Origin: Ruminococcus flavefaciens
GTDB lineage: Bacteria; Bacillota; Clostridia; Oscillospirales; Ruminococcaceae
DNA: 42,822 bases
Assembly: GCA_902766595.1 (NCBI GenBank)
Contig: CACXEJ010000088.1
Location: forward strand, 1 to 42,822
Direction: 5' to 3'
Shown here one piece after another: positions 9,269 to 41,019 of the stretch. The notes below the pieces were generated by a model, which did no database searches, was not told the DNA's origin, and saw only the letters and a list, made by a program, of their open reading frames with translations. The translations under genes were made by a program, and so were the position numbers. Every line of letters begins with the position of its first letter. The first letter of the stretch is position 1.

Positions 9269-9325
9269 TTATATCCTCCGTTCATTTCAGATAAAAACAT
9301 CATCGCCGTACATAAGGTACGGCGG

Positions 9326-10749: not shown

Positions 10750-10759
10750 TTGCTCCTCC

Positions 10760-23474: not shown

Positions 23475-23542
23475 TCTGTTTATTTCACAAAAAATACACA
23501 TAATAATTGTGCAGAACCTACAAAAACGATAGGAGCGATATT

Positions 23543-24082
23543 GTGAGCAGCAGTTATAATAATGAATGTGTATCCGGAAATCTTGACAAAACGGTTACAA
23601 ATGTTGTAAAATTATTGAAGCAGAATGGGTGGACTATATCCACAGCCGAAAGCTGTACGGGCGGTCTGCTCTCAGAGCTGATAACCTCGGTCGCAGGTGC
23701 GTCGGAGGTGTTCGAGCTCGGTATCTGCTCCTATTCCGAAAGGATAAAGAATGAATTGCTGGGAGTGCCCCTTGCGGACATCGCTGAACACGGCGTTGTC
23801 AGCGAACAGGTTGCTCTCGCTATGGTAAAAGGACTGAAACAGCGCTCCGGCGCGGAGGTTTGCGTGTCTGTCACCGGTATAGCCGGTCCGTCGGGCGGCA
23901 CTCCGGAACAGCCGGTTGGCACAGTCTATATTGGCTTTGACATCAACGGTAAGCAGTTCGTAAGGCTCCCGGAGCTGTGGGAGCTGCCGGATACGAGCAG
24001 GGAGAACATCCGCCGTGCCGCCGCTGCTTACGCATTTGAAACGATAGAGAGAATACTCACGGAGGAGATTTCCGTAAGATGA
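23543..24082 (+). CDS. cinA: CinA C-terminal-type NMN deamidase
   Basis: The 179-residue protein is the stand-alone CinA C-terminal domain (PncC type). It carries 'STAESCTGGLLS' (about 33-44), 'GICSYSERIKNELLGV' and 'VSVTGIAGPSGGTPEQPVGTV'. It would convert nicotinamide mononucleotide to nicotinic acid mononucleotide in NAD recycling. The N-terminal MoCF domain of full CinA is absent. The GTG at 23543 is preceded by TAGGAG at a 7-base distance. An in-frame ATG at 23507 lacks a ribosome site. The stop overlaps the next ATG (ATGA). Confidence 0.88.
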   Translation: MSSSYNNECVSGNLDKTVTNVVKLLKQNGWTISTAESCTGGLLSELITSVAGASEVFELGICSYSERIKNELLGVPLADIAEHGVVSEQVALAMVKGLKQRSGAEVCVSVTGIAGPSGGTPEQPVGTVYIGFDINGKQFVRLPELWELPDTSRENIRRAAAAYAFETIERILTEEISVR

Positions 24083-25686
24083 GCGATAATTTCAATGAAG
24101 TGTCCGACGCTGAGGCTAAGCGCCGTGCAGAGAGGATAAATGCGATAAAGAAGTCTGTCCGCGCGGCTTCTGAGGAAAAGCCTGACAGCTCCGAAAGCGC
24201 AGCTCTTGCGGCTCTTGCAGCCCTCGGAGATGTGACCGCAGGAAGAGCTCCGGCTCCTGAACGCAGACCTGCACCCAAGCCGGTCAGCCGGAAGCCTATG
24301 GATGTCAACGATATCCTGCGCGAGCTCGACAGCCGTAATTCCTCTGCCGACACATCTGAAACAAAGGTCGGTGCAGAGGACATAATACGCAGTATGGACG
24401 AGAGCGTTCCCGAAGCTGCTCCGGAAGAGCCTGTGTACAGACAGGCACCGGTCATCAGCCACGAAGCTCCGCCGCCGGCAGTGAAAAGAGCTCCGGTACA
24501 CAGCGAAGAAGAGGACACAAAGCTGTTCAGAGTGAACGAGCCGGCAGACAGACCGGCAGAGGCTCACGAAACAGAGCCGGAACAGCCTGAAGTATCCCAC
24601 AAGAAAAAGAAGAAAAAAAAGAAGAGAACTATAAAACAGCGTTTGCGCGGTCTGTTCCCGCAGAAGGGCGACAGCATTTTTGAACGCATAAGAAAACTGC
24701 TTTTCCTCGGCGCGCTGGTCGTTATCGTTGTATGCGGCTATATCGTTGCCGACTATTATATAGACCTCTGGCGCAGTAAGCGCGAAAACCAGCAGACTAT
24801 GAGCAATTACTGGGACGAGATCAAAGAGGACAGCACACGTCCTACAAAGGTCGATGCGGATAACCGCAAGGTCTACACTATGCTCACCGGTGCGAAGGAG
24901 CTGCTCGAGAAGAACAGCGACGTCGTGGGCATTATCCGTATCGAGGATACTGCCATAAACAACCCTGTTATGCAGGCTGAGGACAACAAAAAGTACCTCA
25001 ATAAGAAGCTGAGCGGAAGAGAGTCCAGAGCAGGAGAGCTCTTCCTCGATTACAGGAACCACTTTGATGAGGTGGACGATGAAGGGCATCTTATCTGCGA
25101 AAATTCCGACAATCTCGTTATCTACGGTCACGAAATGGGCGACGGACAGATGTTCGGAAGCCTCAACAACTACCGCAGCTACGATTACTACTACGGAGAA
25201 CACCCGATCATTGAGCTCAATTCCAACTACGAACAGTACAAATACAAGATATTCTCGTTCTTCGTTCTCGACGCAGAGGACGATACCGAGACAAAGTTCG
25301 ACTGCTGGAACACCCTTGATTTTGATGACGAGGAGGAGTTCTACGAGTTCGTCAACGAGGCTAAGCGCAGAACCATACGCCTCAACGACGTCGATATGAA
25401 GTACGGCGACCAGATACTGACTCTCTCGACCTGCAACGGTCTGCTCGGAGACAGGAGCCGTCTCATAATTATGGCAAGAATGGTCAGGGAAGGCGAGGAT
25501 CCGCTCGCAGGAACACAGAACAGCGTTCCCAATCCCAATATCAAATGGCCTACACTATATTATAAAACAAGAACAAATGAAAAGTACGATCCTGATGCTG
25601 AATTCGTTCCTTACGGTCCGGAGAGCAACACGACCGCTGCAAAAGAAGCGTCAACAGAGACACAGACAGCTTCTCAGGAGAAATAA
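24079..25686 (+). CDS. srtB: Class B sortase with a long cytoplasmic N-terminal region
   Basis: The 535-residue protein has about 205 cytoplasmic residues rich in Ala, Pro, Arg and Glu, then a polylysine stretch (175-182), one membrane helix (about 206-225) and a class B sortase domain (about 275-470). The catalytic residues are H351 (in IYGHEM), C452 (in LSTC) and R461. Sortase B enzymes join surface proteins or other partners to peptidoglycan, or build covalent links. The N-terminal cytoplasmic region is unusually long for a sortase. It overlaps the CinA-type gene by 4 bases and abuts a second sortase with no gap. No LPXTG-type substrate is evident in the window. Confidence 0.9.
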   Translation: MSDNFNEVSDAEAKRRAERINAIKKSVRAASEEKPDSSESAALAALAALGDVTAGRAPAPERRPAPKPVSRKPMDVNDILRELDSRNSSADTSETKVGAEDIIRSMDESVPEAAPEEPVYRQAPVISHEAPPPAVKRAPVHSEEEDTKLFRVNEPADRPAEAHETEPEQPEVSHKKKKKKKKRTIKQRLRGLFPQKGDSIFERIRKLLFLGALVVIVVCGYIVADYYIDLWRSKRENQQTMSNYWDEIKEDSTRPTKVDADNRKVYTMLTGAKELLEKNSDVVGIIRIEDTAINNPVMQAEDNKKYLNKKLSGRESRAGELFLDYRNHFDEVDDEGHLICENSDNLVIYGHEMGDGQMFGSLNNYRSYDYYYGEHPIIELNSNYEQYKYKIFSFFVLDAEDDTETKFDCWNTLDFDDEEEFYEFVNEAKRRTIRLNDVDMKYGDQILTLSTCNGLLGDRSRLIIMARMVREGEDPLAGTQNSVPNPNIKWPTLYYKTRTNEKYDPDAEFVPYGPESNTTAAKEASTETQTASQEK

Positions 25687-26685: not shown

Positions 26686-28248
26686 ATGGATACCAAAAGT
26701 TCATTGAAAGCTGCTGCGGCTGTTGTCGCTGCCGTTCTGACGATATCAACGTCAGCCGGTATGAAAGCGTATGACGATGCAGTGGCTATCGAGGATACTT
26801 CAGCATCTGAGACCGGTACTCAGCCCGGTGAGGAGATCGTTCCTGAGGAGCAGATCGAATGGCACAAGGCTGATGTTTCGGCGTATGACGACAGCTTGTC
26901 GATGATAAGCTATGCGCGTACCACACCGGATATGTTCAAGCTCGGAGACGGGCTCGTGAACGCGCAGCCGGACAGTGATGCTTCAAAGGCACTCTCAGAG
27001 GAACAGCAGGCTATGCTGCTCCTTATCAGAAAAAAGATCAGAAACGCTACGCCGGTACTCGGCAAGAAGAAAAAAGGCGCTACACCTACTGCCGTTGAGG
27101 TATACACCTCGGGCGGCGAGCTCAAGAATGTACCTGAGCCGCAGCACGGACAGGTAGTTCAGAGCAATCCCGGCGAATTCGCTATCCAGACCTACGGCTG
27201 GGGACACGGCGTCGGACTCAGTCAGAACGGCGCTAACTTCTATGCAAAGTACGCAGGCTGGACATATCAGGACATTCTCTATCACTACTATCCGGGCACT
27301 CATCTTATGAATACCGGTACAACTGATACGGAAGTCCTCACGGTAGAGCACGTTCCGGCGGGCAAGACTCTCGATATCATCGCCGGTATCGTTTACCACG
27401 AAATGGGAAGCTCGATGGCTCCCGAAGCTATGAAGGCGCAGGCTGTTGCAGCATACACCTTCCTCAAGTACAACAACGACGACTCGTTCGATATGCGAAT
27501 GAAGGCTGATCCTCCGCAGAATGTCATCGACTGCTGCAAGGAGGTACTCGGAGAAGCCCTCTATTATAATGATGATTTCGCGCTCACGATGTTCTATGCT
27601 TCATCGGGCGGAACTACTTCAAACTGCAACGAGATATTCTGTCAGGATCTCCCGTATCTCAGAACGGTCTCCGGAGACTACGACGAGGCTTACGATCCCC
27701 ACTACGGAACAGTTACCTATATGACTGCCGCAACTATGAGGAACAAGATAGAGTCTCTCTACAACATCTCGCTCTCCGATGATCCCAACAACTGGATAAA
27801 GCCCACATATTCTTCGACAAGCGGATACATCAACAGCGTGAACATCGACGATCAGATAAGTGTTCAGGGCTATTCGTTCTCGCTTGCAATGGGCTTCAAG
27901 TCCTGCAAATTCAACATCACTTATACAGACTACGTCAAGGGCGATGACAACGGCGAAAAGAAGGAGGGAGCTACTATCCCTGTACTTTCACCGAAGGACA
28001 AGAACATCGCACCGCCTTCCGAGAAGAAGGAGGTACCCACAAAGGTACACCCGACTGAGGCTGCAACTGAGGAACCCACTACGGTAACAGCCGTTACAAC
28101 GGCTAAGGCGGCAACAACTACTGCAACTGTAACTACTGTAACAACAACTACCGCTGCTGCAACAACAGTTGCTGCAACTACTGCTGAAAAGGTGACAGAA
28201 CCTGAAACAACAGTTATATTTGAAGCAACAGAAGCAGCTACTGAATAA
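26686..28248 (+). CDS. spoIID: SpoIID-family protein with permuted domain order
   Basis: The 520-residue protein has a signal-type N-terminus (about 8-25), a charged low-complexity stretch and a SpoIID domain (about 165-413), then a Thr/Ala-rich tail (about 455-520). SpoIID proteins cut peptidoglycan glycan strands in engulfment, with a catalytic Glu in the 'EMPxxFxxEALKAQAVAARTY' block. Here the order is unusual: 'GWGHGVGLSQNGA' (171-183) and 'HYYPGT' (200-205), normally the C-terminal end, come before the catalytic block at 238-258 (E239). The PYLRTV segment (323-328) follows, and the strand before the GHG motif (400-413) ends the domain. AAGGAG precedes the ATG. The upstream neighbours are the two sortases. 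Confidence 0.85.
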   Translation: MDTKSSLKAAAAVVAAVLTISTSAGMKAYDDAVAIEDTSASETGTQPGEEIVPEEQIEWHKADVSAYDDSLSMISYARTTPDMFKLGDGLVNAQPDSDASKALSEEQQAMLLLIRKKIRNATPVLGKKKKGATPTAVEVYTSGGELKNVPEPQHGQVVQSNPGEFAIQTYGWGHGVGLSQNGANFYAKYAGWTYQDILYHYYPGTHLMNTGTTDTEVLTVEHVPAGKTLDIIAGIVYHEMGSSMAPEAMKAQAVAAYTFLKYNNDDSFDMRMKADPPQNVIDCCKEVLGEALYYNDDFALTMFYASSGGTTSNCNEIFCQDLPYLRTVSGDYDEAYDPHYGTVTYMTAATMRNKIESLYNISLSDDPNNWIKPTYSSTSGYINSVNIDDQISVQGYSFSLAMGFKSCKFNITYTDYVKGDDNGEKKEGATIPVLSPKDKNIAPPSEKKEVPTKVHPTEAATEEPTTVTAVTTAKAATTTATVTTVTTTTAAATTVAATTAEKVTEPETTVIFEATEAATE

Positions 28249-28602: not shown

Positions 28603-29034
28603 ATGGCAGAACCGTTATGCGGTACTTATTATCCAAGTATAGATCAGAAGGGACGTATGAGCTTTCCCAATAAGCTGAGGGAGATCCTCGGCGTGGAGTT
28701 TTACCTTTGTGCAGGTTACGATGACAAATATATCGCCGTTTATTCAACTGAGGAATTTGAAAAGTACAGACAGAAGCTCGAAACTATCCCCGGCAAGACC
28801 GGTAGCGAGATAAGAAGACGCTTCCTCGCCTGTGCAGACAAGCAGGTCCCCGACAAGCAGGGAAGAATTTTCATCACCCAGCATCTCAGGGATCACGCCC
28901 AGATCAGCGATGAGGTAGTCGTTATAGGCGCTTCAAACAAGGCTGAGATCTGGAACAAACAACTCTGGGAAGAGTTCAACAGCAATGTTTCTCAGGAGGA
29001 TATAAACGCTGCTCTTGCCGATCTCGTACTCTGA
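28603..29034 (+). CDS. mraZ: Transcriptional regulator MraZ
   Basis: The 143-residue protein has two tandem MraZ/AbrB-type DNA-binding halves: 'DQKGRMSFPNKLRE' near residue 14 and 'DKQGRIFITQHLRD' near residue 85. It would repress or tune its own operon. The ATG lies after GAGGTGA, and the GGTG repeats extend to this ribosome site. It heads the division and cell wall cluster, 48 bases before rsmH. Confidence 0.95.
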   Translation: MAEPLCGTYYPSIDQKGRMSFPNKLREILGVEFYLCAGYDDKYIAVYSTEEFEKYRQKLETIPGKTGSEIRRRFLACADKQVPDKQGRIFITQHLRDHAQISDEVVVIGASNKAEIWNKQLWEEFNSNVSQEDINAALADLVL

Positions 29035-29082
29035 TCGCCGGCAGCCGCATATTGAACGGCTTTTCGGCTAAGGAGAGATCTT

Positions 29083-30018
29083 ATGGAATTCAGTCATATA
29101 CCCGTTTTGCTTGATGAATGTATGGAAGGTCTGGACATACGTCCGGACGGTATCTACGTTGACGGTACTGCCGGCGGCGCAGGTCATTCTTCAGCTATCG
29201 CAGCCCGTCTCGGTGAGAACGGCAGGCTCATTGCCCTCGACCGCGATCCCGACGCAGTAAAGACGGCTTCGGAAAGACTGTCTGTCTACCCTAACGCTCA
29301 GGTCATACACAGCAACTATTCGCAGATGCGTGATGTGCTCGACGACCTCGGCATAGACAAGGTGGACGGTATCCTGATGGATCTCGGCGTTTCGTCGTAT
29401 CAGCTCGATGAAGAGAGCAGAGGCTTTTCCTACCACTCGGACGCTCCTCTCGATATGAGAATGAGCAAGGAGGGTATGAGCGCCGCAGACGTTGTGAATA
29501 CTTATTCGGAAAGTGAGCTCGCAAGGATACTGTTTGAGTACGGCGAGGAGAAATTCTCCCGCAGGATAGCTTCAAACATCGTCCGTAAGCGTGAGGAGGC
29601 TCCTATCGAGACTACTCTCCAGCTTGCCGATATAGTAAGGGACAGCGTTCCGCAGAAGGCACGCCGCGATAAGAACCCGTGCAAGAAGACCTTTCAGGCA
29701 ATACGCATCGCCGTCAACGGTGAGTTCGACCACCTCTCAAGAGGACTCGAAGAAGCGTTTTTCAGTCTGAAACCCGGCGGCAGGCTCGCTGTCATAACAT
29801 TCCATTCGCTTGAGGACAGGATAGTCAAGCAGAAATTTGCAGGCTGGTGCAAGGGCTGTATATGCCCGCCTGATTTTCCTCAGTGCGTTTGCGGACATAA
29901 ACCCAAGGGAACACTTGTAAACAGAAAACCCATCGAAGCAGAGGAAAAGGAAGTAGAAAGAAACAACAGAAGCAGAAGCGCTAAGCTCAGGATCATTGAA
30001 AGGAGCGCGGATAATTAA
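29083..30018 (+). CDS. rsmH: 16S rRNA m4C1402 methyltransferase RsmH (MraW)
   Basis: The 311-residue protein has the SAM-binding motif GTAGGAGHS (28-36). It also carries the RsmH signature 'DLGVSSYQLDEESRGFSY', followed by 'LDMRMS', and later 'AIRIAVNGE'. It methylates the N4 of C1402 in 16S rRNA in the decoding centre. It is full-length. The ATG follows AAGGAGAG, and the stop overlaps the ftsL start (TAATG). Confidence 0.96.
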   Translation: MEFSHIPVLLDECMEGLDIRPDGIYVDGTAGGAGHSSAIAARLGENGRLIALDRDPDAVKTASERLSVYPNAQVIHSNYSQMRDVLDDLGIDKVDGILMDLGVSSYQLDEESRGFSYHSDAPLDMRMSKEGMSAADVVNTYSESELARILFEYGEEKFSRRIASNIVRKREEAPIETTLQLADIVRDSVPQKARRDKNPCKKTFQAIRIAVNGEFDHLSRGLEEAFFSLKPGGRLAVITFHSLEDRIVKQKFAGWCKGCICPPDFPQCVCGHKPKGTLVNRKPIEAEEKEVERNNRSRSAKLRIIERSADN

Positions 30019-30530
30019 TGGCTGCATATGATTTTGCCTACATTTTTGAGGACGAAGATTATAACAGCTCAGGATCTGACAACGACCGCGATTCCGACAA
30101 CGATAAGGACAAGGAGAACGGAAGTGAAGAAGAATCGCAGATAAGGGTAAGATATACAGAAGCCCGCAGCGGTTCGGTAATGACCATAATCCTTATGTCA
30201 GCTATCGCAGCTATCGTGCTCGGACTCGTTATATATTCGCTCGACAAGCGCAATACGATGTATAACAGAGTCGCTGACAAAAACCACGAGCTGAGTCTTG
30301 TGGAGGCGGATAACGTCAGACTCCAGTCAGAGCTTGAGAGCAAGGTCTCGGCAAAAAACGTCGAGGACTACGCTAAAAATGTGCTCAGTATGCAAAAAAT
30401 AGATTCATCGCAGATCAAATATATAAAAACACAGGAGAGCGATGAAGTTAAAATTCCCGAGAAGGAGAAGGGCATAAAGGCAAAGGTAAAGTCCTTCTTT
30501 GAGGATCTCGTGGAATATTTCAGAGGGTAG
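30018..30530 (+). CDS. ftsL: Cell division protein FtsL/DivIC type
   Basis: The 170-residue bitopic protein has an acidic, low-complexity cytoplasmic region (about 10-40, rich in Asp, Asn, Ser and Glu), one membrane helix (53-74) and a leucine-zipper-type coiled coil (about 78-112). The position between rsmH and the PBP gene is the standard ftsL place. It would join FtsQ and DivIC at the septum. The ATG overlaps the rsmH stop. Sequence in this family is weakly conserved, so the call rests on layout and position. Confidence 0.85.
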   Translation: MAAYDFAYIFEDEDYNSSGSDNDRDSDNDKDKENGSEEESQIRVRYTEARSGSVMTIILMSAIAAIVLGLVIYSLDKRNTMYNRVADKNHELSLVEADNVRLQSELESKVSAKNVEDYAKNVLSMQKIDSSQIKYIKTQESDEVKIPEKEKGIKAKVKSFFEDLVEYFRG

Positions 30531-30629
30531 TTCAAATATAATATACAAAGCTGCCCGATATTATCAATGAACACTATCGGCGAAAAAAACAAATATGCCG
30601 AAGTATAGTAGAACACGGAGATACAACGG

Positions 30630-30742
30630 GTGATCGGAATACCGGACCTGTGACTCGCGGACGTCTGAACGCAGGGCGTCCGCGGGGCTCAGTCCATCGC
30701 TTCAGGCGAAAATCCTTCGTCGTATCGGAAACAGGACATCAC
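30630..30742 (+). ncRNA. Candidate structured RNA in the ftsL-pbpB spacer
   Basis: Nested complementarities suggest a branched fold. GTGAT (30630-30634) pairs with ATCAC (30738-30742), and CCTGT (30647-30651) with ACAGG (30731-30735). CGCGGACG (30656-30663) pairs with CGTCCGCG (30677-30684), with an inner CTG-aacg-CAG. TCGC (30697-30700) pairs with GCGA (30706-30709), and a CGG-aata-CCG hairpin sits on the 5' side. I know no riboswitch class with this form. The 327-bp spacer (30531-30857) otherwise holds only a small hairpin and the pbpB ribosome site. I see no convincing small gene. Confidence 0.4.
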
Positions 30743-30764
30743 AAAAAAGAAATACGATGTTCAC

Positions 30765-30793
30765 AGGGCGGGGCAGCACAGTTACCCTGCCTT
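30765..30793 (+). other. Hairpin in the ftsL-pbpB spacer
   Basis: GGCGGGG (30767-30773) pairs with CCCTGCC (30785-30791), with one G-T pair, around an 11-base loop. TTATTCTATTT follows, so it may act as a weak attenuator before pbpB. Confidence 0.35.
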
Positions 30794-30857
30794 ATTCTAT
30801 TTACAGGAAAAAATCGTCGCAAAGACTTACATATAGTGCCTTGTAAAGGAGCAGACT

Positions 30858-33242
30858 ATGGCAAATGTAAACCCTACAAATTCAATGAGATTCAGAGCCA
30901 AGATAGTTATGACGGCTGTATTCGTGGTGCTCTTCGGAGCTGTTGCCGCGAATTTTTTCAGGATCTCGGTAATTGATAACAAGAAGTATCAGGCAATGGC
31001 TAATGACCGTCATTTCGGTTCGATAAGCATTTCCGCACACCGCGGTTCGATATTTGACTCAAAGGGTGCTGTAATTGCCAAGAGCGCTTCCGTATATAAG
31101 GTCATACTCGATCCGTCGTGCTTCCGCGATGAGCTCGTTGAGCTCAGAAAGCGCGTGGATAAGCGCAATGCCGATAAGCAGAACGGTTCATACAAGCCGA
31201 GATACGATGAGGAGGGCAACGAGATTGACGCTCTTCCGGAGTCTGTTGACGCTTTCGTGTCAGAGGTGAGCGCAAAGCTCTCTTCCAAGCTGAATATCAA
31301 GCCCGAGGACGTACAGAAGGCTATGGACGCCGATACACAGTACAGTATGCTTCAGGATCAGGTCGAGAAGCAGGTCGCTGATGAGCTCATCTCCTACTTC
31401 AACCAGTACAATATGATCTCTCTCTACGTTGAGGAGGACACCAAGAGATACTACCCCCAGAGCGAGCTTGCTGCGTCGATAGTCGGCTTCACGAATTCTG
31501 ACGGAAACGGACTCTACGGCATTGAGGCTTACTACGATGACTACCTTGCCGGTGTTGACGGAAAGACCGTCTCGGCGAAGGATTCCAACGGCAACGAGCT
31601 CCCCTACAAGTATTCAAAGACCTACGCCGCAAAGAACGGCGATGACATCTATCTCACTATCGACAGCAATATCCAGTTCATACTCGAAAAGCACCTTCAG
31701 GAAATGGTCAACAACTTCAAGGTCAAGAACCGCGGCTGTGCTATCCTTATGAACTGCAAGACCGGCGCTGTCTACGGTATGGCGCAGTACCCGTCGTTCG
31801 ACCTCAACCACCCCTACGAGATCTCAGACAAGGTGGTCGCTGAGGAGATAAAGCAGATAACTGACAAGACCGAGGCTGAAAAGCGCAGCAAGGAGGAGCG
31901 CGAGCTCCAGTGGAGAAACAAGGCTCTCACAGAACGTTACGAGCCGGGTTCGGTATTCAAGGTGCTCACCAGCGCTGCCGCTGCCGAGGAGAACCTCATA
32001 GACTTTGAGAAGCGCTACCTCTACTGTGACGGCGCAAAGATGATACCCGGAGTTCCCAATCCTATCCGTTGTCATCAGGAGGGCGGCCACGACTCACAGA
32101 CCTTCCAGGAGGCACTCACCAACTCCTGTAACCCTGCCTTTATCGATATCGGCTGGGCGCTCGGCGAGGATAAGTTCGTCTACTACTGTGACGCTTTCGG
32201 ACTCGCTGAGAAAACAGGCATCGACCTCCCTGCCGAGAGCAGAGGCGATCCCTTTACAAAGGAAACTATCAACAAGCTCAACCTTTCGACCGGTTCTATC
32301 GGACAGGGCGAAACTGTTACTCCTATCGAGATGATAACCGCATACTGTGCGGCTATCAACGGCGGCTACCTCCTCAAGCCCTATGTTGTTGAGAAGATAG
32401 TCGATCAGGAGGGCAATATCGTTCAGAAGAACGAGAGAACAGTACGCCGTCAGGTAATATCCGAGGACACATCAAAGAAGCTGAGGAGCTGTCTCGAACA
32501 GGTAGTAGTCAGCAAGCCTCAGAGCAATGTTGCTATAACGGGCTACTCTATCGGAGGCAAGTCCGGTACATCACAGCGTAAGATGATAACTGCCGAGAAC
32601 GAGGGCGGTGACTGGAGACAGGAGGAGGACGCTGCAAAGCAGGAATACTGTGCTTCGTATGTGTGCTTCACACCTGCCGAGGATCCCGAGCTCATACTTC
32701 TCGTTATGGCTGATATGCCTGACAAGAACATCGAATACTACGGAAGCAAGGTCGCAGTGCCTACTGCCCGCGACATACTCGAAGAGGTGCTCCCGTATAT
32801 GAATATGAGTCCTGAGTATTCAGATGAAGAGCTCCGCGATCTCGATGTAAAGATACCGATACTTGAGGGCTCGCTCGATGATGCAACTGCTACTCTCGAC
32901 GCTCTCGGACTCAGATACGAGAAGATCGGCAACGGCATCGACGTTGTTTCACAGTATCCGCTCACGGGTACGGCGATCTCGAAGGACGGAACGGTCTACC
33001 TCTATACCGAGAAGGTCAGCAATATAGAATATGTTGCTGTGCCGGACCTGAGATACAATGATCTGACAAGTGCAAATCAGCTCGCTGAGTCCTACGGCGT
33101 AAACATATCAACGTCCGGTGCGTCACCGTCTGCTGCCGGAGCGACAGTCGCGGAACAGAGCCTCGAACCGGGCACACGAGTCCCGAAGGGAACCGTTGTC
33201 AAGCTCGAATTCAAGCTGCCGGATGTAGCGTTCAATGATTAA
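30858..33242 (+). CDS. pbpB: Division-specific penicillin-binding protein with two PASTA domains
   Basis: The 794-residue class B PBP has a membrane helix (about 12-34), a PBP dimerisation domain (about 55-240), a transpeptidase domain (about 260-640) and two PASTA domains (about 664-718 and 725-786). The active-site motifs are S365-V-F-K368, S423-C-N425 and K568-S-G570. It cross-links septal peptidoglycan and would pair with FtsW, encoded downstream. A charged insert (about 100-160) within the dimerisation domain is longer than usual. SpoVD, the sporulation form, has a similar build, so either name is possible. AAAGGAG precedes the ATG. Confidence 0.95.
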   Translation: MANVNPTNSMRFRAKIVMTAVFVVLFGAVAANFFRISVIDNKKYQAMANDRHFGSISISAHRGSIFDSKGAVIAKSASVYKVILDPSCFRDELVELRKRVDKRNADKQNGSYKPRYDEEGNEIDALPESVDAFVSEVSAKLSSKLNIKPEDVQKAMDADTQYSMLQDQVEKQVADELISYFNQYNMISLYVEEDTKRYYPQSELAASIVGFTNSDGNGLYGIEAYYDDYLAGVDGKTVSAKDSNGNELPYKYSKTYAAKNGDDIYLTIDSNIQFILEKHLQEMVNNFKVKNRGCAILMNCKTGAVYGMAQYPSFDLNHPYEISDKVVAEEIKQITDKTEAEKRSKEERELQWRNKALTERYEPGSVFKVLTSAAAAEENLIDFEKRYLYCDGAKMIPGVPNPIRCHQEGGHDSQTFQEALTNSCNPAFIDIGWALGEDKFVYYCDAFGLAEKTGIDLPAESRGDPFTKETINKLNLSTGSIGQGETVTPIEMITAYCAAINGGYLLKPYVVEKIVDQEGNIVQKNERTVRRQVISEDTSKKLRSCLEQVVVSKPQSNVAITGYSIGGKSGTSQRKMITAENEGGDWRQEEDAAKQEYCASYVCFTPAEDPELILLVMADMPDKNIEYYGSKVAVPTARDILEEVLPYMNMSPEYSDEELRDLDVKIPILEGSLDDATATLDALGLRYEKIGNGIDVVSQYPLTGTAISKDGTVYLYTEKVSNIEYVAVPDLRYNDLTSANQLAESYGVNISTSGASPSAAGATVAEQSLEPGTRVPKGTVVKLEFKLPDVAFND

Positions 33243-33286
33243 CGCAGGAAACAACAAACAATAATAAAAATACAGGAGGCGTCGGA

Positions 33287-34723
33287 ATGAAATTATATGA
33301 ACTGCTTGAGAATAACGCTGAGACCGCTATCGGCGATACAGAGATAACTTCGGTTACGGATAATACGGCAGAAGTAAGTGAAGGCAGTCTTTTCGTGTGT
33401 GTCAAGGGACAGAAGTTTGACGGACACAGCGCTGCGGCTGAAATGCTCGAAAAGGGCGCGGCAGCGGTAGTCTGCGAGCACGATCTCGGACTCGGGGACA
33501 GACAGATAATCACCGATAACTCCCGTAACCTCTACGGAAAGCTCTGCGCTGCGTGGTTCGGACACCCGGAGCGCAAGATAAAGATGATAGGCGTTACCGG
33601 TACGAACGGAAAGACTACTATCACGAATGTTATAAAGCATATACTTATGAGTACAGGTCACAAGACCGGTCTCATTGGAACTATACAGAACGAGATAGGC
33701 GACGAGATAGTCCCGACCGAGAACACCACCCCCAAGACTCACGAGTTTATGGCACTGCTTGACAGAATGGTCCGTGAGGGCTGCGAGTATGTGGTAATGG
33801 AGGTATCATCGTTCGGACTCGTCCAGAACCGTATCGGTTCATCATGGTTCGGCATAGCCCTCTTCACGAATCTCACTCAGGATCACCTTGACTACCACAA
33901 GGATATGGAGGACTACTATCAGGCAAAGAAGATGCTCTTCGATATTTGCGACACCGCTATCTGTAACATCGACGACGACTACGGCAGAAGACTCTACGGT
34001 GAGATAGGCTGCGAGAAGCAGACCTTCAGCACAAAGGAGAACGCTACATTCTACGCTGACGGCATAAAGCTCAAAGCGAGCGGTTCGAGCTTCTGGTTCT
34101 GCAACGAGGGCAAGTCCCACTTCGTAAAGACGAGGATACCGGGAATGTTCAATGTCTCGAACCTCACTGCCGCAATGGCAGCCTGTCTCAAGGCAGGCAT
34201 ACCGCTCGACAAGATCATCGCTGCTGTCGAGAGCTACGGCGGAGTAAAGGGACGCTGCGAGGTCATTCCGACCGGCAGGGACTTTACCGTTATCTGCGAC
34301 TATGCTCATACACCCGATGCGCTCGAGAACGTTCTCAGGAGCGTCAAGGAGTACGTTTCCGGCAGACTCATCTGTCTCTTTGGCTGCGGCGGAGACCGTG
34401 ACGCGGCAAAGCGTCCTAAAATGGCTCAGGCAGCTGCAAAATACGCCGATCTTCTCATAGTAACGTCAGATAATCCGCGAAATGAGGAGCCGGAGGCTAT
34501 CATCAGCGAGATACTCACAGGTCTTGAGGGAAGCTCCGTAAAGTACGAAGTTGTCACGGACAGGCGCGAGGCTATATATTATGCCTTGAAAATTGCTGAA
34601 AAAGGTGATATAATAGTTCTTGCCGGAAAAGGTCACGAGGATTATCAGATCCTTGCCGGCGGAAAACACATACACTTTGATGAGCGCGAGGTAGTTGCAG
34701 AGGGCTTGAAGCTCCTTGACTGA
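33287..34723 (+). CDS. murE: UDP-MurNAc-tripeptide synthetase, meso-DAP type (MurE)
   Basis: The 478-residue Mur ligase has the ATP loop GTNGKTT (105-111), the H-T-P-D-A-L-E motif in 'YAHTPDALENVL' and the substrate-choice motif DNPRNEEP (395-402). The R in this motif marks meso-diaminopimelate rather than lysine ligation. The gene lies 44 bases after pbpB with GGAGG before the ATG. The stop is followed after 32 bases by mraY. Confidence 0.96.
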   Translation: MKLYELLENNAETAIGDTEITSVTDNTAEVSEGSLFVCVKGQKFDGHSAAAEMLEKGAAAVVCEHDLGLGDRQIITDNSRNLYGKLCAAWFGHPERKIKMIGVTGTNGKTTITNVIKHILMSTGHKTGLIGTIQNEIGDEIVPTENTTPKTHEFMALLDRMVREGCEYVVMEVSSFGLVQNRIGSSWFGIALFTNLTQDHLDYHKDMEDYYQAKKMLFDICDTAICNIDDDYGRRLYGEIGCEKQTFSTKENATFYADGIKLKASGSSFWFCNEGKSHFVKTRIPGMFNVSNLTAAMAACLKAGIPLDKIIAAVESYGGVKGRCEVIPTGRDFTVICDYAHTPDALENVLRSVKEYVSGRLICLFGCGGDRDAAKRPKMAQAAAKYADLLIVTSDNPRNEEPEAIISEILTGLEGSSVKYEVVTDRREAIYYALKIAEKGDIIVLAGKGHEDYQILAGGKHIHFDEREVVAEGLKLLD

Positions 34724-34755
34724 GCGCGAAAAATAAACGGGAGTTGTTGAATATA

Positions 34756-35793
34756 ATGTCATTCTGGGTAATAAATCTGATAGTGTCGCTGGTATCCTTT
34801 GCGCTGGCGGGAGTTTCGGGAATTTTTCTCGTACCGTTCCTGCACCGCCTGAAGTTCGGTCAGCCGATAAAGACCGAGGACGGTCCGCAATGGCACGCCA
34901 AGAAGCAGGGTACTCCGACAATGGGCGGATTTATGTTCATAATAGCCTCGGTGCTGACTGCGGTCGGCGGCTATTGGGTATACAGGATGCGCGGCGGTGT
35001 TGACACCACCGACAAGGAGGTACTCAACAGCTTTTACAGAATGATGAGCGTTGTGGCATTTTCGATGCTCTTCGGACTCATCGGCTTTATAGACGACTTC
35101 ATAAAGGTCGCAAGAAAGAACAACGACGGTCTTTCACCGCTCCAGAAAATGGCTTTCCAGCTCGTTGTGGCGATAGGCTTTCTGTTCGCACTGTGGAAGT
35201 TCGGCTGCGACTCCACACGCATCGACCTCGGATTTGTAAGGACTCCTTCTCTCGGTATCTTCTACTATCTGCTGATGATACCCGTTATCATATACCTCAC
35301 CAATGCGGTGAACCTCACTGACGGCGTTGACGGTCTCTGCGGCTCGGTAACATTTGTTGCGATGCTGATATTCACAGTCTGCTGCGCAATACTCAGGGAG
35401 ACTGAGCTGTCCCTATTCACAATGGCTCTTGCAGGAGGCTGTCTCGGCTTCCTCATCTGGAACCTCAATCCGGCTAAATGCTTTATGGGCGATACCGGTT
35501 CGATGTTCCTCGGAGCGGCTGTCACCGGAGTCGGTCTCGTGCTCCACAACCACCTGCTCATACTGCTCGTGTCGCTCGTTTACATAATCGAGGCTCTGTC
35601 GGTAGTGATACAGGTAAGCTACTTCAAGTACACCAAGAAGAAGTACGGCGAGGGCAGAAGGATATTCAAGATGACTCCTATCCACCATCACTTCGAGATG
35701 AGCGGCTTCAGCGAGTATAAGATAGTGATAACATTTTCTATGACTGGTATGATATTCGGCGTACTGGGAATAATCTCATTACTGGTATTCTGA
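34756..35793 (+). CDS. mraY: Phospho-MurNAc-pentapeptide transferase MraY
   Basis: The 345-residue protein has ten or so membrane segments and MraY motifs: 'TPTMGGFMF' (53-61), 'FIDDFIKV' with the magnesium-binding aspartates (113-114), 'NLTDGVDGL' near 190, and 'HHHFE' near the end. It makes lipid I at the membrane. The start is uncertain. The ATG at 34756 gives MSFWVINL, while TTG codons at 34744 or 34747 sit very close to GGGAG. No murF or murD gene lies beside it. Confidence 0.95.
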   Translation: MSFWVINLIVSLVSFALAGVSGIFLVPFLHRLKFGQPIKTEDGPQWHAKKQGTPTMGGFMFIIASVLTAVGGYWVYRMRGGVDTTDKEVLNSFYRMMSVVAFSMLFGLIGFIDDFIKVARKNNDGLSPLQKMAFQLVVAIGFLFALWKFGCDSTRIDLGFVRTPSLGIFYYLLMIPVIIYLTNAVNLTDGVDGLCGSVTFVAMLIFTVCCAILRETELSLFTMALAGGCLGFLIWNLNPAKCFMGDTGSMFLGAAVTGVGLVLHNHLLILLVSLVYIIEALSVVIQVSYFKYTKKKYGEGRRIFKMTPIHHHFEMSGFSEYKIVITFSMTGMIFGVLGIISLLVF

Positions 35794-35811
35794 GACCGGG
35801 GGCAGTATGCT

Positions 35812-35835
35812 CCGGCACTGCTCACGGCAGTGCGG
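35812..35835 (+). other. Intercistronic hairpin between mraY and ftsW
   Basis: GCACTGC (35815-35821) pairs with GCAGTGC (35827-35833) around a TCACG loop, plus CC/GG outside. No T tract follows. A role in mRNA stability or processing is possible. Confidence 0.45.
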
Positions 35836-35856
35836 AAAATCTGAACGGAGGACGCA

Positions 35857-37137
35857 ATGGCGGAACGCAAACAGAAAAAAACGGGTGCAGCTCGTACCCT
35901 GTGGAAGACCTTTGTCGGTGAAGGAAGAAACAGCGATATAAGTCTGTCGTTTTTTGCATATGTAATGATACTGCTGGTAGTGGGTATCGTAATGATGTCG
36001 TCCGCGAGCTATGCGTGGGCTTACAGCGAAAAGGACGGCGACGGTCTTTACTACGCGCGAAATCAGGCAAAAATGGCTGTAATAGGCTTCGGCGCGATGA
36101 TCTTCTTTATGAAGATGGACTACCACAATCTCAAAAACATCAAGATACCGGTGATAAAGAAATTCAACATCGCCGGACTTCTCTATGTATTCGCAGCATT
36201 GCTGCTGGTGCTGGTACTCGCTATCGGTAACGACGAGGGCGGTACTATGGGCGCTAAGCGCTGGCTGACGCTCGGACCTATCAACTTCCAGCCGTCAGAG
36301 TTCGCAAAGCTGGCGATAATCGTTTTCTTTGCCTATAATATGGAGCGCGACGGCAAAAAGATGAATACCTTCAAGACCGGTATTATGAAATATGCCGGAC
36401 TTATGGCGGTATATGCGCTGCTGCTCTATAAGGAGCCCCACCTTTCCGGTCTTATCCTCGTCGTAACTATCTCGATAGCAATGATACTCTGCGGCGGTGC
36501 GAACAAGAAGCAGTTCATACTGCTCGGCGCGGCTGCACTTGCACTTGCTGTCATAATCATTTCGTGGCAGGCGCAGGTCGAGGACAGCTACGTTTCAAAG
36601 CGTATCAAGTCGTGGAACGATCCCTTTGCGGACGTCCTCGATGATACATGGCAGACTGCCAACTCGATAATCGCCATAGGCTCAGGCGGAATGTTCGGTC
36701 TGGGACTCGGCAACTCAAGACAGAAATATATGTACCTCCCCGAAACGAAGAACGACTTCGTTTTCCCGATCGTATGCGAGGAGCTCGGATTTGTGGGAGC
36801 GTTTGCGATAATGATGGTATTCTTCCTCCTGATAGTCGAGGGCTTTTCGATAGCAGTTCGCTGCAAGGACCGCTTCGGTATGCTCATAGCAGTCGGTATA
36901 ACCACTCAGATAGGAATTCAGACCGTCCTCAACCTCGCCGTTGTAAGCAACCTAGTTCCGAATACCGGTATCAGCCTGCCGTTCTTCAGCTACGGCGGTA
37001 CGGCGCTGATAATGCAGCTGGCGGAAATGGGCATAATGCTCAACATCTCCCAGCAGAGGTACTACCCGTCGGATAAGCCGGCGAAAAAGAAAAAACGTGC
37101 GGCAGCTCCCGAAAGACCGGAGCTGAACAATGCGTAA
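35857..37137 (+). CDS. ftsW: Septal peptidoglycan polymerase FtsW
   Basis: The 426-residue SEDS protein has about ten membrane segments and family motifs such as 'GAKRWLTLGPINFQPSEFAK' and 'SYGGTALIMQLAEMGI'. It polymerises lipid II glycan strands at the septum with the PASTA-type PBP. The basic, lysine-rich tail (about 405-426) is cytoplasmic. FtsW rather than RodA is supported by its position between mraY and murG. Confidence 0.93.
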   Translation: MAERKQKKTGAARTLWKTFVGEGRNSDISLSFFAYVMILLVVGIVMMSSASYAWAYSEKDGDGLYYARNQAKMAVIGFGAMIFFMKMDYHNLKNIKIPVIKKFNIAGLLYVFAALLLVLVLAIGNDEGGTMGAKRWLTLGPINFQPSEFAKLAIIVFFAYNMERDGKKMNTFKTGIMKYAGLMAVYALLLYKEPHLSGLILVVTISIAMILCGGANKKQFILLGAAALALAVIIISWQAQVEDSYVSKRIKSWNDPFADVLDDTWQTANSIIAIGSGGMFGLGLGNSRQKYMYLPETKNDFVFPIVCEELGFVGAFAIMMVFFLLIVEGFSIAVRCKDRFGMLIAVGITTQIGIQTVLNLAVVSNLVPNTGISLPFFSYGGTALIMQLAEMGIMLNISQQRYYPSDKPAKKKKRAAAPERPELNNA

Positions 37138-37149
37138 AGGAGCCTTAAT

Positions 37150-38283
37150 ATGAGAGTTCTGATAGCCTGCGGCGGAACCGGCGGACATATCAATCCCGGT
37201 ATCGCTATCGCAGATATGATAAAGGAAAAATATCCCGATGCCGAGTTCCTCTTTGCCGGAACTCCCAAGGGTATGGAGTCGAAGCTCGTTCCGAAAGCCG
37301 GTTACAGGCTCGAGACTATCAAGGTCGCCGGCTTCCAGCGGAAGATATCGCTCGAGAACGTCGGCAGGAACGCTAAGGCTCTTGCCTACCTTGCGACCTC
37401 CGGAAAACGTGCGAAGCAGATAATAAAGGACTTCAAGCCCGATATTGCTATCGGAACAGGCGGCTATGCTGCCGGACCGGTCATAAGAAAGGCTGCGAAA
37501 ATGGGTATCCCGACGGCTATCCACGAGCAGAATGCCTACCCGGGAGTTACGAACAGACTTCTCTCCAAGGAAGTTGACTACGTTATGCTCACGGTCATCG
37601 AAGCGCTCGACTATATGGACAAGAGCAAGTTCGAGTACAGCGTTACCGGACTTCCCGTGCGCAGCAGCATAAATTCGATGACAAAGGCTGAGGCGCGGAA
37701 GAAGCTCGGCTTCAACGACGACCTCACGATACTCTCATTCGGCGGAAGTCTCGGTGCAGGCTGCATAAACGAGACTATGGCTGCCGCTATCAAGTGGCAC
37801 GTCAAGGAGGGACTCAGCATCAACCATATCCACGGCTACGGCGGTATGGGCAGAGACACCTTCCCTCAGGAGATGAAAGCAGCGGGTATCCCGATGAAGT
37901 CCGACAGACTCAGGATAACCGAATACATAAACGATATGGACGTATGCCTCGCAGCGGCTGACGTAGTTATCTGCCGCAGCGGTGCTTCGACACTCGCTGA
38001 GCTCGAGGCAGCCGGAAGGGCTTCTATACTGATACCCTCGCCGATAGTTGCCGGCAACCACCAGTACCACAATGCAATGGTGCTCGGAAAGGCAGGCGCG
38101 GCGATAGTCATCGAGCAGAAGGACGCTTCTCCGGAAAAGCTCATTGCGGAGATAAAGAGCTTTCTTGATAAGCCCGGCAAGGCTGACTCTATGGCGGACT
38201 GTGCGAAGAAGCTCTGCGTCACCGACACCAACGACCGTATTATGGCAGTCGTTGAAAAGCTGATAGCCAAGGGCAAAAAGTAA
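37150..38283 (+). CDS. murG: UDP-GlcNAc transferase MurG
   Basis: The 377-residue protein has the GT28 layout with the glycine-rich loop GGTGGH (8-13) near the start and 'HEQNAYPGVTNR' in the N-terminal half. A second nucleotide-binding stretch, 'ICRSGASTLAELEAAG', lies near residue 285. It adds GlcNAc to lipid I to make lipid II on the inner membrane face. AAGGAG is close to the ATG and only 12 bases separate it from ftsW. Confidence 0.96.
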   Translation: MRVLIACGGTGGHINPGIAIADMIKEKYPDAEFLFAGTPKGMESKLVPKAGYRLETIKVAGFQRKISLENVGRNAKALAYLATSGKRAKQIIKDFKPDIAIGTGGYAAGPVIRKAAKMGIPTAIHEQNAYPGVTNRLLSKEVDYVMLTVIEALDYMDKSKFEYSVTGLPVRSSINSMTKAEARKKLGFNDDLTILSFGGSLGAGCINETMAAAIKWHVKEGLSINHIHGYGGMGRDTFPQEMKAAGIPMKSDRLRITEYINDMDVCLAAADVVICRSGASTLAELEAAGRASILIPSPIVAGNHQYHNAMVLGKAGAAIVIEQKDASPEKLIAEIKSFLDKPGKADSMADCAKKLCVTDTNDRIMAVVEKLIAKGKK

Positions 38284-38333
38284 CACTTATACCACACACG
38301 GCATATTATACACAAAGGCTGTGAGGTGGTAAT

Positions 38334-39593
38334 ATGCAGAAATTGATAGTGGAAGGCGGCAGGAAGCTCCGCGGCGAGATAGCTCTTCAGGGGAGCAAGA
38401 ACAGTTCTCTGCCGATAATGGCGGCGGCTATTCTCTGCGGTGAGGAGTGTACGCTCCGCAACTGCCCTGCGCTGACCGATGTCTATGCGGCTTCACGCAT
38501 ACTCAACTGCGTGGGCTGCCGGTGTATGTTCTCGGGAAATACTGCGGCGGTGGACTCGTCTTCGCTGAGCGGTACTGAGATACCCGAGGAGCTTATGCAC
38601 GAAATGCGCTCGTCCATAATCTTTATGGGAGCAATGCTCGGACGCACCGGCGAATGTACGGTGAGCGTCCCCGGCGGCTGTGAGCTCGGACCTCGTCCGA
38701 TAGATATGCACCTTGCCGCTATGAAGAAAATGGGCGTTGATATACGCGACAGCGGCGGACAGATAGTCTGCCGTGCGAAAAACGGACGCGCGAAGGGAAC
38801 TAAGCTGTCCCTGAGCTTTCCCTCGGTAGGCGCTACCGAAAACATTATCCTCTGCGCAGTCACGGCAGAGGGCGAAACAGTGATAAACAATGCCGCACGG
38901 GAGCCTGAGATATGCGATCTGTGCGGATTTCTGCGGGCTTGCGGAGCCGAGATAAAGGGTGACGGAGGCAGCAGGATAGTCATAAACGGCAGGGAGCGTC
39001 TTCACGGCTGCGACTATGCCATAATGCCGGACAGGATAGCCGGCGCGACGTACCTCTCTATGACGGCGGCTGCCGGCGGGGAGATAATACTTACAGATGC
39101 CTGCGTCCCGGAAATGGAGCCGTTCCTGAACGTGCTCGAGCAGACGGGGTGCAGCATATATGCCAGCGGAAACAGGATATACCTGCGGAGCGGTTCGCGT
39201 CTGAGGGCGGTGAGCGGCAGGATTAGAACTATGCCGCACCCGGGTTTCCCGACGGACGCACAGGCTGTGCTTATGGCGGCACTTGCGGCTGCTGACGGCA
39301 CGAGCGTTTTTGAGGAGAATATATTCGACTGCCGCTACCGGCACACTGACGCTCTTGTCAAAATGGGGGCTGATATACAGGTGCTCGGCAAGGTGGCGAT
39401 AGTCCGGGGAGTCCAGCGGCTCCACGGAGCGAACGTCGAAGCGACTGACCTCAGAGGCGGTGCAGCGATGGTATGCGCAGCGCTTGCAGCCGAGGGAGTC
39501 AGCGAGATAAGCAGGATAGAGCATATTGACAGAGGATATGAAAAAATAGAGAACGCGGCCGCGGCCCTGGGCGGAAATATCCGCAGGGTGTGA
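38334..39593 (+). CDS. murA: UDP-GlcNAc 1-carboxyvinyltransferase (MurA)
   Basis: The 419-residue protein has 'GSKNSSLPIMAA' (20-31) and the catalytic cysteine C116 within 'GGCELGPRPID'. A later 'PHPGFPTDAQ' stretch matches the conserved active-site loop. It makes the first committed precursor from phosphoenolpyruvate, and the cysteine predicts fosfomycin binding. The GAGGTGG ribosome site can partly pair with ACCACACA upstream, leaving part of it in a stem. Placing murA after murG is unusual compared with Bacillus. Confidence 0.96.
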   Translation: MQKLIVEGGRKLRGEIALQGSKNSSLPIMAAAILCGEECTLRNCPALTDVYAASRILNCVGCRCMFSGNTAAVDSSSLSGTEIPEELMHEMRSSIIFMGAMLGRTGECTVSVPGGCELGPRPIDMHLAAMKKMGVDIRDSGGQIVCRAKNGRAKGTKLSLSFPSVGATENIILCAVTAEGETVINNAAREPEICDLCGFLRACGAEIKGDGGSRIVINGRERLHGCDYAIMPDRIAGATYLSMTAAAGGEIILTDACVPEMEPFLNVLEQTGCSIYASGNRIYLRSGSRLRAVSGRIRTMPHPGFPTDAQAVLMAALAAADGTSVFEENIFDCRYRHTDALVKMGADIQVLGKVAIVRGVQRLHGANVEATDLRGGAAMVCAALAAEGVSEISRIEHIDRGYEKIENAAAALGGNIRRV

Positions 39594-39611
39594 CCGGGAG
39601 ATGGAGAAGTT

Positions 39612-40823: not shown

Positions 40824-40826
40824 TAG

Positions 40827-40845
40827 CAAATTTGGCGAAAATTTG
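40827..40845 (+). other. AT-rich hairpin after ftsQ
   Basis: CAAATTT (40827-40833) pairs with AAATTTG (40839-40845) around GGCGA, just after the ftsQ stop. There is no T tract, so termination is doubtful. Confidence 0.35.
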
Positions 40846-40915
40846 TACAAAATGCCGCATAAGAACGCTCTGTAATTGTAAAATGCGCTGAAATTCAAAA
40901 AAATTAATTTCAGAC

Positions 40916-40944
40916 TTGAAATAAGTAAGAGATTATGATAAAAT
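40916..40944 (+). promoter_or_regulatory. Promoter for ftsZ
   Basis: TTGAAA at 40916-40921 and TAAAAT at 40939-40944 are 17 bp apart. The ftsZ ATG is about 75 bases downstream. A separate ftsZ promoter fits the 196-bp gap from ftsQ. Confidence 0.7.
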
Positions 40945-41019
40945 ATAAAGTGTATTTATAGAGTTTTGATAATATCTTAAAGGATAAAATACAGGATAAA
41001 TATTTAGGAGGAGTTAAAA

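What the first reader, a model, noticed from the sequence alone, without database searches (positions are those of the whole stretch)
27196..27925. Apparent circular permutation of the SpoIID domain
In SpoIID proteins the catalytic block (EMPxxFxxEALKAQAVAARTY) comes first and the GHGVGxSQ...HYYPGT block comes last. Here GWGHGVGLSQNGA (residues 171-183) and HYYPGT (200-205) precede the catalytic block with E239. The segment that normally leads into GHG (LAMGFKSCKFNITY, 400-413) instead ends the domain. This is a clean rotation of a single-copy domain, not a duplication. A permuted glycan hydrolase next to two sortases could be a distinct subfamily.
Basis: partly seen in the sequence, partly recalled or inferred. 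Interest (0 to 1): 0.75.

Follow-up and report, generated by a model that had tools for sequence, protein, structure and literature searches.

The report
Circularly permuted SpoIID wall enzyme domain
A cell-wall enzyme encoded next to two protein-anchoring sortases has its catalytic domain cut and rejoined in a different order from its relatives; the change is real, is shared by many related bacteria, and may have arisen more than once at the same spot.

Summary
The 520-aa protein at 26686-28248(+) carries one SpoIID domain in rotated order: GHG block (164-208), catalytic block with E239, middle block, closing strand (to 414). PDB SpoIID chains match it in three pieces, rotated. A profile of unpermuted relatives scores the native order 192 bits and the re-rotated order 267 bits over 245 of 264 positions. 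The 80 nearest loci kept from a genome collection (74 titled Ruminococcus) are all permuted. Other genera keep canonical order at the same syntenic site, thiI-cinA-srtB-SpoIID. I verified permuted copies in 32 genera of three families, cut in the same beta-turn. The rotated-domain tree places the two main permuted clades apart, but one clade is not rejected (p 0.15-0.16); the ThiI neighbour tree rejects it (p 0.001). Best reading: an exported SpoIID-type glycan-strand-cleaving enzyme that works with class B sortases. The active-site Glu is kept in all 160 loci read (12 by eye), and 14 of 39 canonical homologues are fused to a sortase. Activity and the sortase partnership are inferred. Paper searches for permuted SpoIID found nothing.

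The parts
26686..28248 (+). Gene of the permuted SpoIID protein (520 aa, P0001)
   Evidence: PF08486 30 bits (cut-off 23); TIGR02669 110.9 bits (cut-off 83.3)
26686..26763 (+). Probable N-terminal signal peptide (residues 1-26, judged by eye)
   Evidence: sequence; not tested with a predictor
27175..27309 (+). Block A: strand F-A-I-Q-T-Y plus GWGHGVGLSQ...HYYPGT (residues 164-208), C-terminal in canonical SpoIID
   Evidence: 168-207 aligns to 5i1t 288-326
27310..27366 (+). New junction (residues 209-227) joining the old C-terminus to the old N-terminus
   Evidence: score plateau for cuts at 206-226; 17-18 residues between blocks A and B in most relatives measured (range 10-26)
27367..27483 (+). 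Block B, catalytic block (residues 228-266), N-terminal in canonical SpoIID
   Evidence: PF08486 match 230-271
27400..27402 (+). Codon of E239, aligned with C. difficile SpoIID E101
   Evidence: 5txu chain numbering; E101A inactive, PMC6221140 passages; invariant in A1, A3, A4
27517..27927 (+). Blocks C1 and C2 (residues 278-414); ends with strand F-N-I-T-Y-T, the other side of the cut
   Evidence: 280-413 aligns to 5i1t 147-280; last strand = residues 409-414
27943..28245 (+). Thr-rich low-complexity tail (residues 420-520), absent in many relatives
   Evidence: in the 80 nearest loci tails are 0-2 residues in 36 and 29-146 in 44
24079..25686 (+). Sortase 1, class B, with N-terminal region and membrane segment (segment judged by eye)
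   Evidence: TIGR03064 157.2 bits (cut-off 153.75); PF04203 44.8 bits
25687..26655 (+). Sortase 2, class B-like; ends 30 bp before the SpoIID start
   Evidence: PF04203 28.2 bits (cut-off 26.6); TIGR03064 114.2 bits, below cut-off
23507..24082 (+). cinA-type gene (PF02464 domain), overlaps sortase 1 by 4 bp
   Evidence: PF02464 173.4 bits
22290..23474 (+). thiI; conserved syntenic neighbour used as locus marker
   Evidence: PF02568 219.3 bits
28603..29034 (+). mraZ, first gene of the division and cell-wall cluster downstream
   Evidence: PF02381 94 bits

Best explanation
The gene encodes an exported SpoIID-family peptidoglycan enzyme whose catalytic domain is circularly permuted. The old termini are joined by a linker of about 17 residues. 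New termini were opened in the short beta-turn between the strand ending F-x-[IV]-x-Y and the strand leading into G-[WY]-G-H-G. Shown by computation: the rotation, its presence in every near relative read, unpermuted homologues at the same locus in sister genera, retention of the catalytic Glu, and the operon-like string with two sortases. Inferred: it folds like SpoIID, cleaves (probably peptide-denuded) glycan strands through E239, and works with the class B sortases beside it, opening or trimming wall where they attach surface proteins. The cut probably was tolerated because it lies in a surface turn; its effect is to attach the N-terminal tether to the GHG block instead of the catalytic block. 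Most likely route: duplication of the domain followed by loss of the outer halves (inferred, no intermediate seen).
For: Rotated three-piece match to PDB SpoIID. Rotation test: native 192.2 bits, best re-rotation 266.6 bits over profile 19-263 of 264. 80 of 80 nearest loci permuted; of 20 high-scoring homologues from other genera 18 are canonical, 15 of these 18 with thiI upstream. 160 loci read: 121 permuted, 39 canonical. Catalytic E invariant in 24/24, 44/44 and 72/72 aligned permuted rows. Sortase-SpoIID fusion in 14 of 39 canonical homologues (phmmer); the three of these 14 scanned with Pfam (L160, L161, L251) all show a Sortase domain above cut-off. Dockerin modules on permuted L192, L205, L216, and PASTA repeats on canonical L215. 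AlphaFold2 core pLDDT 80.6, pTM 0.71, with SpoIID 5i1t the only PDB hit at E<=0.001.
Against: No activity, localisation or structure has been measured. The stretch that holds the zinc ligands in C. difficile SpoIID (5txu 130-170) is only 12 residues here; C140A and H145A abolish activity there in vitro, although the paper says that motif is found only in C. difficile SpoIID. Foldseek TM-scores are modest (0.43-0.52) and rmsd high (5.1, 7.2), as expected for an order-bound aligner, so they do not prove the closed fold. No permuted copy is fused to a sortase (0 of 121), so the fusion evidence comes only from canonical relatives. Permuted copies with no sortase found beside them exist (L252-L255; L192, L193).
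Confidence: 0.75

Rival explanations
1. The protein is an ordinary SpoIID used in spore engulfment, and the rotation has no further meaning.
For: TIGR02870 (stage II sporulation protein D) matches at E 4e-35.
Against: The score is 121 bits against an equivalog cut-off of 234.75. The genome has a separate canonical SpoIID (L001). The gene sits with sortases and, in 71 of 73 testable near loci, within 2.5 kb upstream of rsmH of the division cluster.
Confidence: 0.08
2. The domain is a peptidoglycan-binding localiser that has lost catalysis; it positions the sortases at the wall.
For: Fusion of canonical relatives to sortase, and PASTA or dockerin modules, suit a targeting role. The zinc-site stretch is missing. 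AAYT replaces the AART seen in SpoIID chains.
Against: The catalytic Glu and much of its surroundings are invariant or nearly so in permuted members, and the Glu is present in canonical ones too.
Confidence: 0.2
3. The permuted order arose once and spread: one rotation, then transfer of the gene between families or differential loss of an ancestral permuted paralogue.
For: AU tests on the rotated-domain tree do not reject one permuted clade (p 0.162 and 0.148). The cut is in the same turn. On the rooted tree several permuted rows (L244, L192/L193, the f24 clade) branch before the canonical ones.
Against: The free tree is 22-25 log units better and 0 of 200 bootstrap trees unite the permuted rows. 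The f1 permuted clade (100/100) lies inside canonical f1 sequences. The ThiI neighbour tree rejects one permuted clade (p 0.00086; only 6 of its 25 permuted rows lie outside the main f1 group).
Confidence: 0.4
4. Artefact: assembly error, frameshift or chance motif matches make the order look rotated.
For: The window genome is a fragmented draft (145 contigs, 82% complete).
Against: The same order occurs in 80 of 80 loci, including records of named R. flavefaciens strains (YL228, MA2007, ATCC 19208, ND2009, 007c), in single open frames.
Confidence: 0.01

Closest known systems
SpoIID of Clostridioides difficile and Bacillus (PDB 5i1t, 5txu, 4rwr; TIGR02870)
   Same: All three sequence blocks, catalytic Glu (E101 in C. 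difficile = E239 here), GHG and HYY motifs
   Different: Block order rotated; zinc stretch shortened to 12 residues; gene beside sortases; below the equivalog cut-off
SpoIID/LytB domain proteins (PF08486, TIGR02669), including the chlamydial septal SpoIID (PMC6635528, passages)
   Same: Domain models met above cut-off; the chlamydial protein is a precedent for a non-sporulation, septal role
   Different: Rotated order here; block order and sortase partners of the chlamydial protein are not stated in the passages read
Unpermuted sortase-linked SpoIID of sister genera (e.g. L146, L148, L153; CinA-sortase-SpoIID fusions L160, L251)
   Same: Same kind of locus, same blocks, same catalytic Glu
   Different: Canonical order; 14 of 39 fused to the sortase, against 0 of 121 permuted copies
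SpoIID-like predicted sortase substrate of Clostridium acetobutylicum (PMC4877998, passage)
   Same: A SpoIID-like protein tied to a sortase
   Different: There the SpoIID-like protein is a proposed substrate with LPXTG motifs; by eye the window protein ends without LPXTG and membrane anchor; the passage does not speak of order

Membership tests
SpoIID domain (PF08486 / TIGR02669) | Score above the curated cut-off | tested here: met
   PF08486 30 vs 23 bits; TIGR02669 110.9 vs 83.3 bits in two stretches
SpoIID domain (PF08486 / TIGR02669) | Catalytic Glu in the E-M-x...EALKAQ block | tested here: met
   E239 aligned with E101, invariant
SpoIID domain (PF08486 / TIGR02669) | Canonical order: catalytic block first, GHG block last | tested here: not met
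   Rotated
SpoIID domain (PF08486 / TIGR02669) | Glycan-strand cleavage | not testable with these tools
   needs enzyme assay
Stage II sporulation protein D (TIGR02870 equivalog) | Score above equivalog cut-off | tested here: not met
   121.4 vs 234.75 bits
Natural circular permutant | Single copy of every block, order rotated, not shuffled | tested here: met
Natural circular permutant | Re-rotation restores one continuous alignment | tested here: met
   192.2 -> 266.6 bits, 19-263 of 264
Natural circular permutant | Unpermuted homologue at the same locus | tested here: met
   canonical copies beside thiI-cinA-srtB in sister genera
Natural circular permutant | Old and new termini adjacent in the fold | tested here: inconclusive
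   New termini flank a short turn in canonical sequences; AlphaFold2 core fairly confident but distances not measured
Class B sortase (neighbour srtB1) | TIGR03064 above cut-off | tested here: met
   157.2 vs 153.75 bits
Class B sortase (neighbour srtB2) | TIGR03064 above cut-off | tested here: not met
   114.2 vs 153.75 bits; PF04203 is met

The most novel reading that the evidence does not exclude
The SpoIID domain has been circularly permuted at least twice at the same beta-turn, each time at the same sortase locus. That would be a recurrent natural circular permutation that re-tethers a wall-cleaving enzyme by its GHG block, within an unrecognised module in which sortases and a SpoIID enzyme jointly anchor surface proteins (in R. 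flavefaciens possibly the sortase-anchored cellulosome scaffoldin).
Probability: 0.4. Interest if true: 0.82.

Novelty: new variant of a known kind. Interest (0 to 1): 0.68.

Why it matters
A natural circular permutation with unpermuted relatives still at the same locus is a natural experiment: cut site, likely direction and consequence can all be read. This one affects a peptidoglycan enzyme in rumen and gut bacteria. TIGR02669 and TIGR02870 match it only in pieces, so its order is easily overlooked under a SpoIID/LytB label (my inference). The repeated link to class B sortases (same locus in permuted and unpermuted forms, fused in some unpermuted ones) suggests that wall cleavage and covalent protein anchoring are coupled, which can be tested directly.

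Tried and rejected
Chance or unrelated halves: rejected. Tandem duplication: the order strings show each block once per protein; no two-copy intermediate was seen among the loci read. Single origin of the permutation: not rejected by the domain tree, rejected by the ThiI tree, so left open; on the rooted tree a permuted ancestor, one return to canonical order and a second permutation needs as few changes (3) as any other account, so the number and direction of events are not settled. Rows dropped: that tree left out 10 of the 19 rows taken from the 80 nearest loci and the four rows L224, L225, L230, L250 (long branches); the unrooted tree kept them. Those 19 rows were labelled genus g1 by assumption. 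In one search only 45 of 85 non-outgroup rows had a usable ThiI. The catalytic-Glu regex fitted 148 of 160; in the 12 misses an E stands at the same place by eye. Loci outside the genus were chosen by score and partly because their hits looked permuted, so 121 against 39 is not a frequency. Promoter and terminator scan: promoters as expected by chance; not used. Papers: SpoIID with circular permutation 0, with circularly permuted 0; lytic transglycosylase with circular permutation 6, none on SpoIID by title; SpoIID with sortase 3; SpoIID with Ruminococcus 6. Passages (not whole texts) were seen of PMC6221140, PMC4877998, PMC7924749, PMC4081043, PMC6635528; other papers were seen only as listings.

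Full report
What was checked. The open frame 26686-28248(+) encodes 520 residues. Pfam and NCBIfam agree: PF08486 30 bits over 230-271 and TIGR02669 110.9 bits in two stretches, against one stretch in the unpermuted homologue L146.

Formal test of rotation. I built a profile from 39 canonical homologues and scored all 261 rotations of residues 156-416. The native order gives a best stretch of 192.2 bits (profile 19-216). Cutting at residue 209 gives 266.6 bits (profile 19-263 of 264), with a plateau for cuts at about 206-226; of the cuts printed at every tenth residue the lowest is 125.3 at 336. So residues 209-227 are the joint between the old C- and N-termini. The new termini lie in the turn between C2 (ends F-N-I-T-Y) and A (starts F-A-I-Q-T-Y-G).

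Where the cut is. In canonical homologues this is a short turn, for example FTVSY-SNG-VFTFTTYGYGH. Of 39 canonical proteins 35 had a GHG motif readable by the regex; 33 of these end 37-43 residues after its start, the other two after 44 and 153. Of 28 permuted f24 proteins 26 were measured, and 21 of them end 0-4 residues after the C2 strand. Of the 80 nearest loci 36 end 0-2 residues after it and 44 carry tails of 29-146 residues. The same turn is therefore opened in both main permuted groups.

How widespread. Relatives search: 35 of 35 same-genus genomes match at E<=1e-72; the 30 loci extracted (own genome and 29 others) have the GHG motif at residues 134-200, ahead of the catalytic block in the alignment. 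All 80 are permuted. Of 20 high-scoring homologues from other genera taken from the order search, 18 are canonical. Further loci from two families bring the total read to 160: 121 permuted, 39 canonical. Ten more, picked because they looked permuted, were permuted, one of them short (L257, blocks A and B only). Permuted copies were thus verified in 11 genera of the window's family (f1), 20 of family f24 and one of f43 (G1261, a 77% complete genome with 5% contamination, so unsure). In a class-wide sample of 391 genomes only the window genome and G1261 show a full-span permuted hit among the matches printed (list truncated); in 398 genomes of the phylum, 13 have a match at E<=1e-30 and only the window genome's is full-span.

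Same locus, other order. In the 80 nearest loci the usual string is thiI-(cinA)-srtB1-srtB2-permuted SpoIID, with rsmH within 2.5 kb downstream in 71 of 73 loci with enough flank. Two sortases upstream passed a strict distance rule in 68 of 74; the six misses do list both sortases. In sister genera thiI-cinA-srtB(s)-SpoIID occurs with canonical SpoIID: 15 of the 18 canonical loci of the first set have thiI upstream.

How many origins. On a rooted tree of rotated domains (94 rows, outgroup nine ordinary SpoIIDs) the f1 permuted clade (21 rows) has support 100/100 and lies inside canonical rows (forks 96/86, 99/94, 99/93). The f24 permuted clade (24 rows, 97/93) lies apart, L192/L193 and L244 branch separately near the base, and 0 of 200 bootstrap trees unite all permuted rows. 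Against this, the AU test does not reject one permuted clade (p 0.162 with three unsure rows left free, 0.148 with all), and because permuted rows branch first on the rooted tree, a permuted ancestor with one return and a second permutation is as short as any other account. The tree of the neighbour ThiI (45 rows) rejects one permuted clade (p 0.00086; 0.001 without L244). At least two rotations at one hinge is my preferred reading; one rotation followed by transfer or differential loss remains possible.

Function. E239 aligns with E101 of C. difficile SpoIID, whose alanine mutant is inactive. It is invariant in the alignments of permuted rows (24, 44 and 72 rows), and an E is present at the place in all 160 loci, 12 of them judged by eye. 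The zinc stretch of C. difficile has no counterpart; the paper says that motif is found only in C. difficile SpoIID. The chlamydial SpoIID is a precedent for a septal, non-sporulation role (passages). Link to sortase: the locus is shared by permuted and canonical forms, and 14 of 39 canonical genes are fused to a sortase, 0 of 121 permuted ones. L160 and L251 read CinA-membrane segment (by eye)-sortase-SpoIID and L161 sortase-SpoIID; canonical L215, which is not among the 14 fusions, has three PASTA repeats. A profile of the N-terminal regions of 15 f24 permuted proteins matches the CinA part of L160 at 7e-16, and other permuted proteins carry dockerin modules (L192, L205, L216 above cut-off; L202 below). 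R. flavefaciens anchors its scaffoldin ScaE by a sortase (PMC4081043 passages), so a role in surface-protein display is plausible; nothing here shows that these two sortases do it.

Structure. AlphaFold2 on the core with a 72-row alignment: mean pLDDT 80.6, pTM 0.71; first strand residues 164-169, last strand 409-414. The longer construct gave 70.4 and 0.64. Foldseek returns SpoIID 5i1t as the only hit at E<=0.001 for both models (E 2e-6 and 1.4e-4), with TM-scores 0.43-0.52; an order-bound aligner can cover only the unrotated part. I could not measure distances between termini.

Verdict. A real natural circular permutation of the SpoIID domain, found in every near relative read, within a sortase-linked family; new variant of a known kind. 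Group codes (f1, f24, g1...) are the tool's anonymous codes. SpoIID motif knowledge and the names of unscanned neighbour genes are recalled.

Noticed in passing
L192:5393-6475(-), L205:5133-6434(+), L216:5058-6404(-): Permuted SpoIID proteins carrying an N-terminal type I dockerin (Pfam above cut-off), which suggests docking onto a cohesin-bearing surface protein.
   Followed up: partly
L160:8897-12247(-), L251:2641-6600(+): Single open frames joining CinA domains, a membrane segment (by eye), a sortase and a canonical SpoIID domain (1117 and 1320 aa).
   Followed up: partly
L215:2714-6604(+): 1297-aa protein with three PASTA repeats before a canonical SpoIID domain; it lies beside a sortase gene but is not itself counted as a fusion.
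   Followed up: partly
L252, L253, L254, L255: Short permuted SpoIID proteins (326-370 aa) with no sortase found in the stretch fetched; genome G512 has one of these (L253) as well as a sortase-linked permuted copy (L207).
   Followed up: partly
L003:379-1776(-): A third, divergent SpoIID-like protein of the window genome (PF08486 26.3 bits) with a degenerate GHG motif (CEGLSQWG), followed by what look like peptidoglycan-binding repeats (by eye).
   Followed up: no
window 6812-11776(-) and 28603-42153(+): The operon lies between mreB, mreC and a PBP2-like gene on one strand and the mraZ-to-ftsZ division cluster on the other, a dense cell-wall neighbourhood.
   Followed up: partly
L068, L107: Two records titled Alistipes in the collection carry the Ruminococcus-type locus, so those bins or titles look wrong.
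   Followed up: no
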